Notes under the pieces: generated by a model
Told to the model about the DNA's origin: nothing
Seen by the model: only the letters and a program-made list of their open reading frames with translations
Databases searched by the model: none
Made by a program: the position numbers and the translations under genes
Shown: one piece after another, positions 1-8,598 of the stretch
How positions within the stretch are numbered: position 1 is the stretch's first letter
How the letters are laid out: every line of letters begins with the position of its first letter
DNA from: Pannonibacter sp. SL95
Lineage (GTDB): Bacteria; Pseudomonadota; Alphaproteobacteria; Rhizobiales; Stappiaceae
DNA length: 64,000 bases
Assembly (NCBI RefSeq): GCF_026672425.1
Contig: NZ_JAPPRC010000003.1
Coordinates: 1,222,501-1,286,500, forward strand
Direction: 5' to 3'

Positions 1-369
1 AACGAATACATCTCGAGGTTGCGGCGGCGGAATTCGGAGCGGCAAGTCCGCGATTTCTCGGCCGACATCTACGAGGACAGCACGGCAGACATGGCCGACA
101 GCCGCCCGAGCCAGGAACATCTTCTCTGGCAGCAGGAAGCGCTCGCCAGGGTGATGCGGCTGATCGACCGGTTGCCGGAGGAGCACCAGAGGATCTTCGA
201 GATGCGCTTCTGCGATGAGCTGGGCTACCGCGAGATCGCTGCTGACCTGGGTATTTCGGAGGCCCTGGCGCGCAAGCGGGTACAGAACCTGCGGCAGATG
301 CTGCGAGCAGGTCTCGAACATGCGGAAGAGCCGAAGCTGATCCCGCCGCCGTCACGGCGGAAAGGGTGA
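1..369 (+). CDS. RNA polymerase sigma-70 family factor, C-terminal part (5' end outside window)
   Basis: The reading frame is already open at base 1, so the gene begins to the left; 122 residues are visible. The C-terminal half reads LPEEHQRIFEMRF, then YREIAADLGISEALARKRVQ, a typical sigma region 4 helix-turn-helix that contacts the -35 element. The upstream part is the acidic linker expected between regions 2 and 4. The tail KLIPPPSRRKG is basic. It ends 48 bp before the first RebB gene on the same strand. Reb loci in other proteobacteria are often accompanied by their own regulators, so it may direct transcription of the R-body genes; that link is inferred from position only. ECF-type or another sigma-70 group cannot be decided without the N-terminus. 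Confidence 0.85.
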   Translation, partial: NEYISRLRRRNSERQVRDFSADIYEDSTADMADSRPSQEHLLWQQEALARVMRLIDRLPEEHQRIFEMRFCDELGYREIAADLGISEALARKRVQNLRQMLRAGLEHAEEPKLIPPPSRRKG

Positions 370-417
370 AACGTCCAGAGGGATACGGCAATCGCGAGCT
401 GAACAGGAAAATCTACC

Positions 418-642
418 ATGGTCGATCTTGTAAACGCACAAATCACCGATGCAGTCACCCAGACCAATGTGAAGGTTGTGGCGGAGGCGCCGGCCCAGGC
501 GATCGCCAGTCTGTATCAGGTCAGCAGCCATGCGACCGGTCTTTCGATCCAGAACGCCGTGCACAGCCAGCAGGCCATGAACCAGATCATGACGGCGGTC
601 GTGTCGAAAGCAGTGCAGCTGATCATGGACATCGGAGAGTAG
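418..642 (+). CDS. RebB-family R-body protein
   Basis: A 74-residue protein. Its first half, NAQITDAVTQTNVKVVAEAP followed by AQAIASLYQ and a TGLSIQNAV segment, is the RebB (R-body) family signature. RebB-family proteins are the building blocks of R-bodies, the coiled protein ribbons of Caedibacter and other proteobacteria that unroll into needles. This copy ends earlier than the two copies at 3383 and 3874 and lacks their Ser/Thr/Ala-rich tail. The start at 418 has a weak upstream AGGA. It is the first reb gene after the sigma factor and probably heads the operon. Family assignment is firm; polymerisation is not shown. Confidence 0.9.
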   Translation: MVDLVNAQITDAVTQTNVKVVAEAPAQAIASLYQVSSHATGLSIQNAVHSQQAMNQIMTAVVSKAVQLIMDIGE

Positions 643-768
643 CGGCTGCGCGCCACGGGCCGGAGCTATTTCCCGGCCGGCGTGACGGAAGCGCCCCTCG
701 TCCTGTTGCGGTAACCCGCCGGCGGTCAGTGGACCTGTCGCCGGGATCGATTCCACGGGAGACGGATC

Positions 769-1776
769 ATGTGGCTGGCGTCAGGACTCCAGCGTCTGAA
801 GTCATTCTTTGACGGACCGCCGCAAGCCGCTCCAGCTGGTGCGGAGCACGGTGCGGATTGGGCCGACGGCGGAAACGATGGCTGGACTGCCGATTGGGTG
901 CCCGACCGGCCGCGGCGGCGCCTGACTGCTGATGGTCTTGCCGGAGCGCCGAACGGAACGCGCGCCACGGCACATGTCATGGAAGGGGCCTCGCGTGGGG
1001 CGAGCGTCAGCCGTCCGCGCCCGCAAACCGACGCGCCCACCACAAGCAACCGGGAAACCCGCGACAAACAGGGAAGGTCTGACATGGACATTCAGGGTCA
1101 AGGCAGCCTGGCCGCCGAAGGCAGGATGAACGGAGCGGCTGCACATGGTGCATTCGCCGCCCTGTCGGAAGACAACGACGCGCCGGCGCGACCGCAGAGG
1201 ATGACCGGCGAGGACATGGTGCGCCGCAGTCCTGCCCCGAGCCGGAGTGCTGAACCGGCCATCGCCCTTGCGGCAGCACCAGGCGGTGGTGGCAAGGGCA
1301 CGGGCGGGCTTGGTGCCGGTATCGGCGGCAATGGTCTTGGTGACGGGGGCGGCGATGGTACGGGCGATGATCCTCCGGCGCCTCCCGCGCCTCCTGCCCC
1401 TCCCGCGCCATCGGGTGGCAGTACCTCGGCACTGAACCAGCAGGTGGTTCAGGCCGTCCAGTTTTCCAATACGGAGAACCTTGCCTATGGCATGAAGATG
1501 GCCGTAACGCCGCCGGAAATCATGGTGGGTCAGACCACCGGGCAGGCGGTGCAGGATGCAGCCAGTTACATGAACGCCATCATGCAGATCGCGGTCGCAG
1601 CCCAGGCCATTGCGATCAAGAAGGCCGCGCAGGGTCCTGTTGGTGAAGCCGAGGCGGTCCCGCTGCTGGCTGAAATCCAGAGCATGGTGACCGCCGCCGT
1701 GCAGGTCTACGGGTCCGTGAGCACGACGGCCGGCCAGTCGGCCCAGACGATCTTCAGCGATCTCAAGACACCCTGA
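769..1776 (+). CDS. Large RebB-like protein with Gly/Pro hinge
   Basis: A 335-residue protein in the Reb cluster. Residues 1-165 are low-complexity and rich in Arg, Ala and Pro; 171-200 are Gly-rich; 202-214 are a Pro-Pro-Ala repeat. Residues 221-335 resemble RebB: NQQVVQAVQFSN matches the VTDAVTQSN core, and GQTTGQAVQDAASYMNA matches the STGILFQNAV segment. This suggests a modified structural subunit or capping protein in which a RebB-like domain is tethered through a flexible hinge. The start at 769 has GGGAG upstream. An internal ATG at 1084 also has a good site (GGAAGG) and would give 230 residues, so the true start is uncertain. RebB relationship is by eye; function unknown. Confidence 0.7.
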   Translation: MWLASGLQRLKSFFDGPPQAAPAGAEHGADWADGGNDGWTADWVPDRPRRRLTADGLAGAPNGTRATAHVMEGASRGASVSRPRPQTDAPTTSNRETRDKQGRSDMDIQGQGSLAAEGRMNGAAAHGAFAALSEDNDAPARPQRMTGEDMVRRSPAPSRSAEPAIALAAAPGGGGKGTGGLGAGIGGNGLGDGGGDGTGDDPPAPPAPPAPPAPSGGSTSALNQQVVQAVQFSNTENLAYGMKMAVTPPEIMVGQTTGQAVQDAASYMNAIMQIAVAAQAIAIKKAAQGPVGEAEAVPLLAEIQSMVTAAVQVYGSVSTTAGQSAQTIFSDLKTP

Positions 1777-1865
1777 CCGTCTCATCGGTCCGGACACGAC
1801 CAGACCCTTGCGAAGCAGTCTTCGCCGGGCAGGGACCACGCATGCCCGAAAAAGGAGCGGTGATC

Positions 1866-2393
1866 ATGGAACTCGAAATCAATGTCATCTGTACCGAACT
1901 GGACAGCCTGCTGGCTGACTTTCTGACCAGCTGGGCCGAGGATCTGGGCAAGGAGCGCGACGCTGCCGAGCTTGAACGGCTCTACTGCATGTATCCGCGC
2001 GTGATCAGCCAGATCGCCAGCGCCCGGGCCTCGTTGTGGGGCGCAGACCAGATGATGGCGGTCGCCCGCAATCTGCGCTTTGCCCCGGCACCTGAAGTCG
2101 AGCTGCGGGCCATGCATGTGAGCGGTGGATGTGGCCATCCCTGCAGCTCCGGCGTGAGCGGGGTCTATGTCGCCCGCAGCGGCGATCATGGCTGCCGCTG
2201 CCATGAACATGCGGATCCGCGCGGTACTGAGCGGACCTCCGACCGGGATGTGATCCGTCCGTCTGACCGTGACTATGAGCGGGAAGTCAGCAGCGCAACC
2301 GCAAGGGCTTCGGGCCGGGATGCCGGCCGCGAGGATGACCGCAATTCCGAGGAGAGCAGCGATGACCGAAACGCTGATCGTTTCCGCGCCTGA
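1866..2393 (+). CDS. Unrecognised Reb-locus protein with Cys/His segment
   Basis: A 175-residue protein I do not recognise. The ATG at 1866 is preceded by AAAGGAG at 1851-1857, which favours it over the in-frame ATG at 1842. The N-terminal 80 residues look helical and acidic (ELEINVICTELDSLLADF, then WAEDLGKERDAAELERLY). A middle segment has clustered cysteines and histidines (GGCGHPCSSG, then DHGCRCHEHADPRG) that could bind a metal. The C-terminal 60 residues are highly charged, rich in Arg, Asp, Glu and Ser, and probably disordered. It sits between RebB-type genes on the same strand, and its 3' end overlaps the next gene by 32 bp, indicating co-transcription. A role in R-body assembly or control is only inferred. 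Confidence 0.6.
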   Translation: MELEINVICTELDSLLADFLTSWAEDLGKERDAAELERLYCMYPRVISQIASARASLWGADQMMAVARNLRFAPAPEVELRAMHVSGGCGHPCSSGVSGVYVARSGDHGCRCHEHADPRGTERTSDRDVIRPSDRDYEREVSSATARASGRDAGREDDRNSEESSDDRNADRFRA

Positions 2394-3255
2394 AACCCCG
2401 ACGCTCGTCGCGCCGAACGTTGTGGCACCAACGGTTCCGATCCCGACCGCTGATGCGCCCGAAGTGACTGCGCCCGTGGTGCCCGTGCCCAAGATCGAGG
2501 TGATGGTTGGCGGGGTTCCCGAGCCGGAAACCCCGCCGCCCGCATCTGCTGCGCCTGCGGCATCTGCCAGCGGCAGCGAACCGTCCGTTGCCCAACCTGC
2601 GGTGCCCCCGGTGGCGCCTGGCCCGGCGGGTGATCCTGCTGCTGCTGCGGCGGCGGGATCGGGGCCGGCGTCCGGGCTCAGCGTGCCGGAAGGCGACCAG
2701 CTGATGCGCCGCCTCCTGCAGGATCATCTGAAAGTGGCGGCCTTGCAGGCGGGATATCAGGCCGTTTCCCGCTCATTGCCGGCCATTCTGGCAGCCGGAA
2801 TTGAAGCCGGGCGTCAGAAGCGCGCGGCTGATGCGGCGTTCGAGCAGGGCATCGCGACAGCGGCCAAGATCCTGGCTGCCACGCGCGATACGGCCGCGCA
2901 GCTGTCGACCTCGATGCGCAGCGAGCACGAAACCATGCTGCGTCTCCTGTCGGACAAGGACCTGCTCGGACAGCTCACATCATCTGCCTCTGTCGCACTC
3001 GCCGCAGCCAACACGCTTGGACATGGGCTCGGGGCACCCCCGGGGAGTGAACCGGCACCAGCAGCCGGACAAGGGCAACCTGCAGCCCAGGCAGGTGCCA
3101 TGCCCCAGGCGACGCCCAGGGGCATGGCCATGCAGATGAACCAGAGAATGGGCGATGTCCGCGGGGTCGTTGCCCAGGAAGTCGACCGGAAGATCTCCGG
3201 TCTGCTGGCCCAGCTTGCCGCCCGACTGGAGCAGAAACGCGCCGGCCGGGGATAG
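2362..3255 (+). CDS. Unrecognised Pro/Ala-rich helical Reb-locus protein
   Basis: A 297-residue protein. The ATG at 2362 has GAGGAG at 2349-2354. Residues 1-110 are rich in Pro, Ala and Val with repeated VxAPxVxxP patterns and look extended or disordered. From about residue 115 it becomes helical (GDQLMRRLLQDHLKVAALQA onward), with a long alanine-rich stretch and a C-terminal amphipathic helix (EVDRKISGLLAQLAARLEQK). The helical half recalls the helical segments of RebB proteins, but I see no clear RebB core. It overlaps the preceding gene and precedes the tandem rebB pair. It may be a scaffold or linker for the ribbon; I do not assign a function. Confidence 0.6.
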   Translation: MTETLIVSAPETPTLVAPNVVAPTVPIPTADAPEVTAPVVPVPKIEVMVGGVPEPETPPPASAAPAASASGSEPSVAQPAVPPVAPGPAGDPAAAAAAGSGPASGLSVPEGDQLMRRLLQDHLKVAALQAGYQAVSRSLPAILAAGIEAGRQKRAADAAFEQGIATAAKILAATRDTAAQLSTSMRSEHETMLRLLSDKDLLGQLTSSASVALAAANTLGHGLGAPPGSEPAPAAGQGQPAAQAGAMPQATPRGMAMQMNQRMGDVRGVVAQEVDRKISGLLAQLAARLEQKRAGRG

Positions 3256-3382
3256 GTGCATTGGGGTGAAATCCCGAAAAAGAATAACAAAAATAATGAG
3301 TTAGTTTTCACGTAAGCCAAGTTCAGGCGTCGATATGAAGGCAACGGGGAGGGCATCACCCCCCGCAATCAGGAGCAAACAG

Positions 3383-3703
3383 ATGGCCGTACCTGTCACC
3401 GTGAATCCGATGGTCACCGACGCCGTGACCCAGTCCAACCTCAAGGTCGTGGGCGAAGCCCCGGCGATCGCCATCAGCACGCTGTATCAGGCGATGGCGC
3501 ATTCCACAGGCATCCTGTTCCAGAATGCCGTGCAGGCGCAGCAGCAGCAGACCTCGCTGGCCCAGGCCGCGGTCAACCAGGGCATCATGCAGATCTATTC
3601 GCTCGACACCACGGCTGCCGCCGGTGCGACCGAAAAGATCGCCCAGACCGGCACGAGCGACAGCCTGACCAGCCTGCTGACGATCCTCAACTCGTTCAGC
3701 TGA
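3383..3703 (+). CDS. RebB-family R-body protein, tandem copy 1
   Basis: A 106-residue RebB-family protein with the core VTDAVTQSNLKVVGEAPAIA, then STLYQAMAHSTG and a QAQQQQTS stretch, followed by a Ser/Thr-rich tail. The ATG at 3383 has AGGAG at 3371-3375; a start further upstream would add residues not shared with copy 2. It differs from the copy at 3874 at 9 of 106 aligned positions, so the pair is a recent duplication or kept alike by conversion. R-bodies elsewhere are built from several small RebB-type chains, so these two are the best candidates for the main structural subunits. Confidence 0.92.
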   Translation: MAVPVTVNPMVTDAVTQSNLKVVGEAPAIAISTLYQAMAHSTGILFQNAVQAQQQQTSLAQAAVNQGIMQIYSLDTTAAAGATEKIAQTGTSDSLTSLLTILNSFS

Positions 3704-3723
3704 CCGGATCGCCGTGGCCCCCG

Positions 3724-3746
3724 CCGGCCTGGCAACCCCAGGCCGG
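3724..3746 (+). other. Stem-loop between the two rebB copies
   Basis: A perfect 9-bp stem (CCGGCCTGG, loop CAACC, CCAGGCCGG) lies 20 bp after the stop of rebB copy 1. No T-run follows, so it is more likely an mRNA-stabilising or partial attenuating hairpin than a full terminator. Confidence 0.5.
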
Positions 3747-3873
3747 ACACGCATCGCGATCGACTGAAAAGATAAAGAAACCCAGTGCTTTCCCGTCACA
3801 ACACCCCATCAGGGGCGTCCTATCAGATGCAAAGGCCGAGTGACGAGCGGCCACCCTCAAAGGAGCAAGACCC

Positions 3874-4203
3874 ATGGCAGATCCCGTAACCGTCAACCCG
3901 ATGGTCACCGATGCGGTGACGCAGTCCAACGTCAAGGTCGTGGGTGAAGCCCCGGCCATTGCCATCAGCACGCTGTACCAGGCGATGGCGCACTCCACCG
4001 GCATCCTGTTCGAGAATGCTGTGCAGGCGCAGCAGCAGCAGACGTCGCTGGCCCAGGCTGCTGTCAACCAGGGCATCATGCAGATCTACTCGCTCGACAC
4101 CACGGCTGCCGCCGGTGCGACCGAGAAGGTCGCCCAGACTGGCGTTGCCGACAACCTCACCAGCCTTCTGACCGTTCTGAACGCCTTCAGCGGCGGTCGC
4201 TGA
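3874..4203 (+). CDS. RebB-family R-body protein, tandem copy 2
   Basis: A 109-residue RebB-family protein nearly identical to the copy at 3383. It has an FENAVQAQQQQTS segment where copy 1 has FQNAV, and three extra residues (GGR) at the end. The ATG at 3874 follows AAAGGAGC at 3859-3865. It is the last gene of the Reb cluster; an imperfect hairpin with a T-run follows. Both copies keep the Gln-rich helix and the IYSLDTTAAA segment, so both are probably functional structural subunits. Confidence 0.92.
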   Translation: MADPVTVNPMVTDAVTQSNVKVVGEAPAIAISTLYQAMAHSTGILFENAVQAQQQQTSLAQAAVNQGIMQIYSLDTTAAAGATEKVAQTGVADNLTSLLTVLNAFSGGR

Positions 4204-7956: not shown

Positions 7957-8238
7957 TCAGGGGCAGGGGACCTTGTAGGGGTTCCGGTTGGCGTCGCGGG
8001 CGATGCATTCGCGTGGGGCGGTCGCAGCCCCGATCAGGCCACCGCCGACGGCACCGATGGCAGCGCCTGCCAGTGCTGCGCCAGCGGTCGAACCGGCTGC
8101 AGCGCCAATCGCTGCGCCCGTTGCAGCGCCAAGACCCCCGCCCACCAGAATCCGGTCGCGTTGGCTGGTGCTCGAACAGGCGGCAAGGCTGCCACAAATC
8201 AAGAGAACGGAAATGTGCGCGAGACGGCGCAATGCCAT
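7957..8238 (-). CDS. Glycine-zipper lipoprotein A
   Basis: A 93-residue predicted lipoprotein. The signal peptide MALRRLAHISVLLICGSLAAC ends in lipobox LAAC, so Cys21 would be lipidated. Residues 35-80 are an alternating Gly/Ala glycine zipper (GGGLGAATGAAIGAAAG), a helix type that packs in membranes. The tail CIARDANRNPYKVPC has two Cys that could pair. The ATG at 8238 has GGAG upstream and is preferred over the TTG at 8268. It is a paralogue of the next gene upstream (8326-8598), with the same layout including SQRDR after the lipobox. Cell-envelope location is likely; role unknown. Confidence 0.8.
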   Translation of the reverse strand: MALRRLAHISVLLICGSLAACSSTSQRDRILVGGGLGAATGAAIGAAAGSTAGAALAGAAIGAVGGGLIGAATAPRECIARDANRNPYKVPCP

Positions 8239-8325
8239 GCTGCGGTCTCCAGCGTCACGGAAAGGCAAGACGAGCCCGGCCGGGCGGCGAAAGCCAAACC
8301 CGGCGCGGGCCTTGATCTGATCCGA

Positions 8326-8598
8326 TTACGGGCAAACCACGCGGTACGGACGGCCATACCGGTCGTAGGCAACGCAGTTCTTCGGAGTGGTTGCCGAGCC
8401 GACGATCGCGCCACCGGCACCGCCGATCACGCCGCCGACCAGAGCGCCGCCGACATCGCCGGTTGCTGCTGCGCCGATGATGGCGCCGGTCGCTGCACCC
8501 AGGCCACCGCCGACCAGAGCACGGTCACGCTGGCTGTCAGACTGGCAAGCGGCCAGTGCGAGGCCTGCCACGGCCAGGACTACAAACTTCTTCATCAT
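8326..8598 (-). CDS. Glycine-zipper lipoprotein B
   Basis: A 90-residue predicted lipoprotein. The signal MMKKFVVLAVAGLALAAC ends in lipobox ALAAC. It is followed by SDSQRDRALVGGGLGAATGA, then a long Gly/Ala zipper and the tail NCVAYDRYGRPYRVVC with paired cysteines. GGGAG precedes the start. It is the tandem paralogue of 7957-8238, sharing the order lipobox, SQRDR, zipper, C-x(n)-C tail. Related small proteins in Rhizobiales are annotated only as glycine-zipper or hypothetical lipoproteins; function is not known. Confidence 0.82.
   Translation of the reverse strand: MMKKFVVLAVAGLALAACQSDSQRDRALVGGGLGAATGAIIGAAATGDVGGALVGGVIGGAGGAIVGSATTPKNCVAYDRYGRPYRVVCP

What the first reader, a model, noticed from the sequence alone, without database searches (positions are those of the whole stretch)
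1..4203. R-body locus with its own sigma factor and two unrecognised genes
Three clear RebB proteins and a large RebB-like protein lie in one strand-coherent cluster behind a sigma-70-type factor, with two further proteins of no recognised family interleaved and one 32-bp overlap. R-bodies are contractile protein ribbons linked to killing or host interaction. The set suggests a self-regulated machine with parts beyond the known RebA-D set. Grouping is seen; regulation and assembly are inferred.
Basis: partly seen in the sequence, partly recalled or inferred. Interest (0 to 1): 0.8.

Follow-up and report, generated by a model that had tools for sequence, protein, structure and literature searches.

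The report
R-body operon with dedicated sigma-factor promoters
A bacterium, probably a Pannonibacter, carries a full gene set for R-bodies (coiled protein ribbons that some bacteria use against eukaryotic cells), and matching promoters in front of the set's own sigma factor and its main genes suggest a self-amplifying switch; the gene set is of a known type, while I found no description of the promoter or of one accessory gene.

Summary
Window 1-4203 is one strand-coherent R-body (reb) operon: an ECF sigma gene (start 233 bases left of the window), three RebB proteins (93-96 bits, cut-off 24), a 230-aa distant Reb relative (RapA/S4 type), and two proteins without a family, X (175 aa) and Y (297 aa), overlapping by 32 bp. 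The kind is known: Raymann's 'Group 2' reb cluster, described also in Labrenzia alexandrii, where R-bodies were seen by EM, and in Pseudomonas aeruginosa PA14. X and Y are not passengers: among 87 family genomes X occurs in 34 of 40 with RebB and 1 of 47 without, Y in 37 of 40 and 0 of 47; profile comparison links both to genes at the same place in Gamma- and Betaproteobacteria. New as far as my searches show: a two-block promoter (TCAC, exactly 16 bp, CGTC/CGTT) stands before the short reb gene in 77 of 80 named loci and before the first long reb in 70 of 73; it occurs in 42 of 42 reb loci with the sigma gene on the reb strand and 1 of 21 without. The window locus has four copies, one before the sigma gene itself: predicted positive autoregulation. 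All computed; nothing tested at the bench.

The parts
1..369 (+). ECF sigma factor gene, 3' part (whole gene 200 aa, GTG start at G000:C3:1222267, 233 bases left of the window)
   Evidence: Sigma70_r2 46.3 bits, Sigma70_r4_2 44.8 bits on the whole gene; present in 38 of 43 first-set loci
352..375 (+). Predicted sigma-dependent promoter P2 (TCAC-N16-CGTC), 42 nt before the short reb gene; overlaps the sigma gene's end
   Evidence: such a site before the short reb in 77 of 80 named loci
418..642 (+). Short RebB (RebD-like), 74 aa
   Evidence: PF11747 94.8 bits; 100% identical in Pannonibacter carbonis, 83-84% in many of the listed Pseudomonas
1084..1776 (+). RapA/S4-type Reb-like protein 'BIG', 230 aa, Pro/Gly-rich N-terminal half
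   Evidence: No Pfam; alpha versus gamma/beta profile E 4.6e-33; versus short Reb profile E 4.5e-5, versus long Reb profile not significant
1866..2393 (+). X, 175 aa: helical hairpin (residues 2-71) plus disordered Cys- and charge-rich tail
   Evidence: X in 34 of 40 RebB+ and 1 of 47 RebB- family genomes; AF2 pLDDT above 90 over residues 1-70; profile link to gamma/beta genes E 9.1e-7
2362..3255 (+). Y, 297 aa: disordered Pro-rich N-terminus, helices 110-197, 199-220, 252-295; overlaps X by 32 bp; probable HP2.2 of Raymann 2013 (inference)
   Evidence: Y in 37 of 40 RebB+ and 0 of 47 RebB- family genomes; AF2; profile link E 8.6e-8; dN/dS 0.064
3308..3331 (+). Predicted sigma-dependent promoter P3, 51 nt before the first long reb
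   Evidence: such a site before the first long reb in 70 of 73 named loci
3383..3703 (+). Long RebB (RebP-like), 106 aa
   Evidence: PF11747 93.0 bits on the longer frame 3335-3703
3796..3819 (+). Predicted sigma-dependent promoter P4, 54 nt before the second long reb
   Evidence: this one is little conserved: before the second long reb in 4 of 26 alpha and 2 of 41 gamma/beta loci
3874..4203 (+). Long RebB (RebP-like), 109 aa
   Evidence: PF11747 96.0 bits

Best explanation
A complete and probably working R-body operon of the known Group 2 type. The ECF sigma factor directs RNA polymerase to four promoters of one design (TCAC, 16 bp, CGTC): its own, one for short reb-rapA-like-X-Y, and one for each long reb gene. 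Because the sigma gene has the same promoter, a small amount of sigma raises its own synthesis: a positive loop that would make expression all-or-none per cell. The long Rebs then polymerise into the coiled ribbon, with the RapA-like protein bound to it. X and Y, encoded as an overlapping pair, are most likely helical adaptor or assembly proteins of the ribbon, not enzymes. Shown here by computation: genes, conservation, co-occurrence, promoter copies and their link to the sigma gene. Inferred: sigma binding to the motif, autoregulation, ribbon formation in this organism, and the roles of X and Y.
For: RebB scores of 93-96 bits, cut-off 24. Fixed order sigma-short reb-BIG-X-Y-reb-reb in 34 of the 38 first-set loci that have sigma and BIG. 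X 34/40 versus 1/47 and Y 37/40 versus 0/47 family genomes (Fisher 7e-17 and 2e-21). Block pair with spacing 16 before the short reb in 77/80, first long reb in 70/73, sigma gene in 18/27 alpha loci; other spacings 0-3. It tracks the sigma gene: 42/42 reb loci with it on the reb strand, 1/21 without (Fisher 1.6e-15). In the own genome 22 sites fit the narrow pattern; 4 lie in this locus, on one strand, 42-54 nt before an SD-supported start. Purifying selection against P. carbonis: dN/dS 0.026 sigma, no amino-acid change in short reb and the second long reb, 0.086 BIG, 0.157 X, 0.064 Y, 0.093 first long reb. A locus that fits R. alexandrii DFL-11, where EM shows R-bodies, has X and Y. In PA14 the cluster's sigma factor FecI2 is required for reb transcription, which is stochastic (0.26% of cells), and RapA co-localises with RebP1 (passages).
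Against: No expression or EM data exist here for this organism. The fixed letters of the motif are not over-represented in the window (3 found, 3.27 expected); the weight comes from position and conservation across species, which are not independent samples. Gamma/beta sigma genes mostly lack the motif (3 of 52), 9 of 27 alpha loci lack it at the place tested, and in two of the 18 it falls at the assumed start, so autoregulation is a prediction for part of the alpha group. Three of the 21 'no sigma' loci (L142, L147, L150) do have a sigma gene on the other strand and no site, and several of the 21 are on short contigs. BIG's link to Reb is weak: E 4.5e-5 to short Rebs, not significant to long Rebs. 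The alpha X and Y profiles find only 7 and 4 of 53 gamma/beta loci one by one; the cross-class link rests on profile-profile comparison. X was missed in 6 of 40 RebB+ genomes (one of these, G318, had given a match). 7 of the 18 other own-genome sites also have an SD-supported start within 130 nt, so further targets are not excluded. The K/R/V letters of the narrow pattern were chosen after seeing the sites.
Confidence: 0.8

Rival explanations
1. X and Y are not assembly parts but the active payload, or a payload with its protector, carried by the ribbon.
For: X has a faster-changing tail rich in Cys and charge (dN/dS 0.41 for residues 81-175 against 0.18 for 1-80, versus L050); the same stretch of the operon holds enzymes in relatives; the toxin is called unknown in a 2026 paper (passage).
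Against: Neither shows an enzyme family in Pfam, NCBIfam or PHROGs; AF2 gives only helices and disorder; a Y-like gene is in 65 of 73 named loci with a defined slot, and also where an enzyme gene lies beside it (13 of 13, 7 of 8 and 5 of 6 in the three enzyme classes), which fits a structural role better.
Confidence: 0.15
2. The TCAC-N16-CGT block pair is the operator of another regulator (for example a Crp-like protein), not a sigma-factor promoter.
For: Some gamma/beta clusters have a Crp-like gene beside the sigma gene: 4 of the 10 upstream frames scanned, from 9 loci, and RcgA is needed in PA14.
Against: The two blocks are not inverted repeats of each other, their spacing is 16 bp as between -35 and -10 boxes, reb starts follow at 32-126 nt, and the motif is as constant in alpha loci; no Crp-like gene is among the 10 frames scanned around the own locus; it tracks the sigma gene.
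Confidence: 0.12
3. A decayed or silent locus kept by chance.
For: 47 of 87 family genomes have no RebB match, so it can be lost; two loci are split (L075, L085).
Against: All frames open, SD-supported starts, dN/dS below 0.2 for every gene against P. carbonis, all four promoter sites intact.
Confidence: 0.05
4. X and Y merely hitch-hike beside reb genes.
For: The locus sits at one chromosomal place (between ilvI and trhO) in the alpha loci tested, so shared descent alone could keep neighbours together.
Against: Relatives of both keep this place in Gamma- and Betaproteobacteria (the one Pseudomonas locus tested has neither flank) and they are absent where reb is absent.
Confidence: 0.03

Closest known systems
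Group 2 reb clusters (Raymann et al. 2013, PMC3583457; abstract, one section and passages seen)
   Same: Reb genes with a sigma factor (HP2.3) and two conserved hypotheticals (HP2.1, HP2.2, about 205-220 aa). Dorr 2026 (PMC13430693; Results and passages seen) names rapA as a Reb-related S4 protein and lists HP2.2-HP2.4 as unrelated to Reb; so HP2.1 fits BIG and HP2.2 fits Y (my inference; no sequences compared).
   Different: No Crp-like gene (HP2.4) among the flanking frames scanned; nothing like X is listed for Group 2 in the section read, nor a promoter.
reb cluster of Labrenzia (Roseibium) alexandrii DFL-11, R-bodies seen by EM (Fiebig et al. 2013, PMC3764935; passages seen)
   Same: ECF sigma gene, a RebB, hypotheticals, then two RebB; the three Reb lengths 76, 109 and 122 aa are also those of locus L070, which has X and Y.
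   Different: Four hypotheticals there, three here; the extra one would be a small frame (96 or 102 aa in L070) that the window lacks. The paper lists the three lengths in another gene order than L070 shows.
Pseudomonas aeruginosa PA14 reb cluster (Wang et al. 2021, PMC8322103; abstract, passages and Discussion seen)
   Same: fecI2 sigma gene, rebD, rapA, small genes, rebP1, rebP2: by locus-tag numbers the same order as sigma, short reb, BIG, X/Y, long reb, long reb.
   Different: PA14 has the regulator RcgA; its genes 27675/27660/27650 are reported as not conserved. PA14's sequence was not among the loci I had, so I could not test whether they are X and Y.
Azorhizobium caulinodans reb operon (Matsuoka et al. 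2017, PMC5527310; abstract and one section seen)
   Same: Several reb genes with co-transcribed genes of unknown function; R-bodies shown.
   Different: Controlled by PraR and a Crp-Fnr activator RebR; no sigma factor is mentioned in what I read.

Membership tests
RebB family (PF11747) | Pfam score above gathering cut-off (24 bits) | tested here: met
   94.8, 93.0 and 96.0 bits
Group 2 reb cluster (Raymann 2013) | Sigma factor and two conserved hypotheticals beside reb genes | tested here: met
   Full order in 34 of 38 first-set loci with sigma and BIG; in the named set 79 of 80 have the sigma gene and 79 of 80 BIG on the reb strand. That these are the same hypotheticals as HP2.1 and HP2.2 is inferred
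Group 2 reb cluster (Raymann 2013) | Crp-like regulator HP2.4 (frequent, not universal) | tested here: not met
   Ten flanking frames scanned: serA-, ilvH-, ilvI-, rhodanese-, SMP-30-, Lrp/AsnC-, ald-like, a glycine zipper and two without a family; none Crp-like above cut-off. The rest of the genome was not scanned for it
RapA / Dorr group S4 | Reb-related protein with extended N-terminus, between rebD and the long reb genes | tested here: met
   BIG: position, alpha-gamma/beta profile E 4.6e-33, link to short Reb E 4.5e-5, to long Reb not significant. PA14 RapA itself was not compared
ECF sigma factor | Sigma region 2 and region 4 only | tested here: met
   Sigma70_r2 46.3 bits, r4_2 44.8 bits, TIGR02937 79.2 bits
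R-body producer | Coiled ribbons in cells by EM | not testable with these tools
   Needs microscopy; published images are of a relative, L. alexandrii
Azorhizobium-type reb operon (PraR/RebR) | Crp-Fnr activator inside the operon | tested here: not met
   No Crp-like family in the seven frames of the locus nor in the flanking frames scanned

The most novel reading that the evidence does not exclude
R-body operons of Alpha-, Gamma- and Betaproteobacteria share one private transcription circuit (ECF sigma plus TCAC-N16-CGT promoters, self-amplifying in much of the alpha group), and X, Y and RapA form a docking module beside which lineages swap in different enzymes (papain-like, phage lysozyme, phospholipase and others), so that the ribbon is a general chassis with exchangeable payloads; the Pannonibacter locus is the bare chassis.
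Probability: 0.3. Interest if true: 0.8.

Novelty: new member of a known kind. Interest (0 to 1): 0.5.

Why it matters
How R-bodies are switched on, which proteins besides Reb they need, and what the killing agent is are open questions (the toxin is still called unknown in 2026; passage). This locus offers a compact case in which each can be tested: a predicted promoter for one sigma factor, two conserved accessory families (I found no name for X), and a place in the operon where relatives carry enzymes that are candidates for what the ribbon delivers or uses to open the cell. Positive autoregulation would also give a simple cause for expression in few cells, as seen for rebP1 in PA14, though PA14's own sigma promoter was not examined here.

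Tried and rejected
Pfam, NCBIfam, PHROG and PDB searches for X and Y gave nothing at the limits used. No solved structure matches the one long Reb searched. Fold search of the AF2 models was not run: X is a two-helix hairpin and Y long helices of middling confidence (pTM 0.41 and 0.31), for which matches would mean little. A plasmid search with a RapA-like protein of a Pseudomonas locus (L193) found three records, Burkholderia and Ruegeria, each covering part of it. Phage records hold no match to the short Reb. A first own-genome promoter search had the spacing wrong by one base; it found 32 sites and none of the four cluster sites and serves only as an off-register control; the right spacing is. 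Window-wide counting of the motif shows no excess. The 18 further own-genome sites were looked at by script: 17 lie inside some frame of 150 aa or more, but so do the four cluster sites, so that test says nothing; 7 of the 18 have an SD-supported start within 130 nt; none was followed further. The idea that X and Y are related to Reb or to each other was not supported (hhalign probabilities 0.1-0.2% for X-Y, X-Reb, Y-Reb and 1.5% for Y-BIG). The search in the class of G725 gave 3 of 303 genomes; the neighbourhoods of the two new ones (G1151, G1273) were not fetched.
Full report
WHAT IS THERE. The window is G000:C3:1222501-1286500 of a 5.04-Mb genome. Its left 4.2 kb hold one operon-like cluster on the + strand: ECF sigma gene (whole gene 200 aa, start outside the window), short RebB 418-642, a 230-aa protein 'BIG' 1084-1776, X 1866-2393, Y 2362-3255, long RebB 3383-3703 and long RebB 3874-4203. 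The short Reb is 100% identical to that of Pannonibacter carbonis, and ilvI beside the locus is 97.8% identical, so the organism is probably a Pannonibacter (inference). The three RebB proteins score 93-96 bits with a cut-off of 24 and are the only ones in the genome.

HOW COMMON. RebB (PF11747) was found in 40 of 87 genomes of the family, 7 of 297 of the order, 13 of 337 of the class, 11 of 398 of the phylum and 3 of 303 of the class of G725. I fetched neighbourhoods of 39 family and 3 order genomes besides the own one: 38 of these 43 loci have the sigma gene and BIG, and 34 of the 38 show the full order sigma-short reb-BIG-X-Y-reb-reb, some with one or two further reb genes. Of the other four, L060 and L077 lacked a detectable X at that step (X of G337, the genome of L077, was found later) and L075 and L085 are split on two strands. 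Five loci (L051, L052, L086-L088) have reb genes without the rest. The cluster lies beside ilvI and trhO in six of nine loci tested (Pannonibacter, Roseibium, Pseudovibrio), beside trhO alone in two, and beside neither in the Pseudomonas locus; so it is old in the family and has been lost in many genomes (inference).

X AND Y BELONG TO THE SYSTEM. With an X profile, 34 of 40 RebB-positive and 1 of 47 RebB-negative family genomes have a match; the single exception scores 22 bits inside a 468-aa frame and looks like chance. With a Y profile: 37 of 40 and 0 of 47. Fisher values are 7e-17 and 2e-21; genomes are related, so these are not strict probabilities, and the profiles contain members from some of these genomes, so the absences are the informative side. 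Against P. carbonis, dN/dS is 0.157 for X (residues 1-80: no amino-acid change, four silent ones) and 0.064 for Y; against the more distant L050 it is 0.29 and 0.24. X and Y overlap in 19 of the 25 loci listed (recounted; starts there were chosen by a simple SD rule, and some may be wrong), by 32 bp in the window, P. carbonis, P. indicus and P. phragmitetus; the overlap thus belongs to the layout. Structure prediction gives X a helical hairpin (residues 2-71, block means of pLDDT 91-97) and a disordered tail, and Y a disordered Pro-rich start, helices over 110-220 and a helix 252-295 at middling confidence. No library that I searched names either.

BEYOND THE FAMILY. I of them alpha and 53 gamma/beta. 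The sigma gene lies on the reb strand in 79 of 80 and BIG in 79 of 80; 73 have BIG followed by a long reb on that strand. Between them ('slot'), a Y-like gene is found in 65 of the 73: 25 alpha loci and 40 gamma/beta loci, the latter forming their own BLAST cluster. The alpha profiles alone find X in 25 and Y in 27 of 27 alpha loci but X in only 7 and Y in 4 of 53 gamma/beta loci; the gamma/beta X-like genes measured have 66-70 codons. Profile-profile comparison supports homology: X alpha versus gamma/beta E 9e-7 (91%), Y E 9e-8 (94%), BIG E 5e-33; reversed-sequence controls gave at most 2%. BIG occupies the place of PA14 rapA, and Dorr 2026 counts rapA as a Reb-related S4 protein. By elimination, HP2.1 of Raymann would be BIG and HP2.2 would be Y; X has no counterpart in the passages I read.

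THE PROMOTER. Reading the DNA before sigma and reb genes showed one repeated pair of blocks. Counted over the 80 named loci, TCAC-N16-CGT[CT] lies within 180 nt before the short reb in 77 of 80 (27/27 alpha, 50/53 others), before the first long reb in 70 of 73 (24/26, 46/47), before the sigma gene in 18 of 27 alpha and 3 of 52 other loci (start taken as 600 nt before the frame's end). Spacings 12-15 and 17-20 give 0-3 per class; shuffled DNA gives 0-0.5. Over 168 sites, besides the letters fixed by the pattern, only the T before TCAC (1.2 bits), the A after it (1.3) and the base after CGT (1.0) reach one bit; the bases between and around carry little. In sigma loci 116 of 201 genes have a site, in the others 1 of 76. 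Of the 42, 38 are family loci, many of them the same genomes as named ones; L117, L120, L121 and L144 come from other families and played no part in finding the motif. Three of the 21 (L142, L147, L150) have a sigma gene on the opposite strand and no site. In the own cluster there are four sites, at G000:C3:1222193-1222217, 1222851-1222875, 1225807-1225831 and 1226295-1226319, followed after 42-54 nt by the starts of sigma, short reb and the two long reb genes. The narrow pattern has 22 sites in the genome; a reversed control pattern gives 39, so the 18 elsewhere fit chance, though some could be real. By simple count the motif is not enriched in the window; position and conservation make the case.

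HOW IT PROBABLY WORKS. The simplest reading is a private ECF circuit: the sigma factor recognises these promoters and, in much of the alpha group, its own. Positive feedback, with no anti-sigma family among the frames scanned around this locus, would make cells switch on singly; the stochastic rebP1 expression in PA14 that depends on FecI2 and RcgA would fit, though gamma/beta sigma genes seldom have the motif and four of ten upstream frames scanned there are Crp-like instead. The Rebs make the ribbon (published for other Rebs), the RapA-like protein rides on it (PA14), and X and Y are best seen as helical adaptor or assembly proteins. These last roles are inference.

WHAT IS KNOWN. Sigma genes and conserved hypotheticals beside reb genes are in Raymann 2013 and Fiebig 2013; FecI2, RcgA and RapA in Wang 2021. 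L070 fits R. alexandrii DFL-11: three Rebs of 76, 109 and 122 aa, four frames between, a first contig of 5,300,256 bases against the published 5,299,280-bp chromosome; this identity is an inference. I found no report of the promoter or of X: searches, passages; most subscription papers are not in that library, so this is weak evidence of absence.

VERDICT. A sound observation of a known kind of system, with two additions that can be tested at once (the promoter circuit and the X family). Interest 0.5.

Noticed in passing
L194, L212, L215, L226 and 9 other Pseudomonas loci, in the slot between BIG and the long reb genes: A gene of about 212 aa with weak likeness to permuted papain-like YaeF/YiiX enzymes (L212 scanned: Pfam C92 E 0.044, NCBIfam E 1.4e-4, both below cut-off) sits in the slot of 13 loci by BLAST clustering.
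   Followed up: partly
L184-L187, L209, L222 (cluster of 6), also L191, L193: A protein of about 730 aa fills the same slot; the two examples scanned (L184, L191) have no Pfam family, and L191 no NCBIfam family.
   Followed up: partly
L210, L230, L233, L235, L236, L238-L240, in the slot: In Chromobacterium, Paraburkholderia and Trinickia the slot carries a phage-type lysozyme (PF00959, 185.8 bits in L230; 8 loci by clustering), a small holin-like protein (by eye; no Pfam in L235) and a PHB-depolymerase-like protein (L230, below cut-off); L236 also has a patatin-like phospholipase (70.4 bits) with a relative in L233. This looks like a lysis cassette inside an R-body operon.
   Followed up: partly
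L117, L120, L121 (same-class family f65): Six, seven and seven copies of the block pair on the reb strand of these 13-14 kb loci; in L117 and L121 a Y-like frame (E 5e-5 and 3e-5) lies before the sigma gene.
   Followed up: partly
window 1866-2393 and Roseibium X genes: X tails contain Cys clusters (CCPCCGG in several Roseibium, CGHPC and CRCH here); a metal-binding or cross-linking role was not tested.
   Followed up: no
window 418-642, 3383-3703, 3874-4203: All three RebB proteins match phrog_32040 (62.5-64.3 bits), so a Reb-like protein exists among the viral families of PHROGs, although no phage record matched the short Reb.
   Followed up: no
L075 (G330) and L085 (G360): Clusters split on opposite strands several kb apart: Y and one reb on one side, sigma-short reb-BIG on the other.
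   Followed up: no
window 7957-8268 and 8326-8598, minus strand: Two adjacent small Gly-rich proteins with near-repeated sequence (by eye); the second matches the glycine-zipper family PF13488 (28.9 bits).
   Followed up: partly
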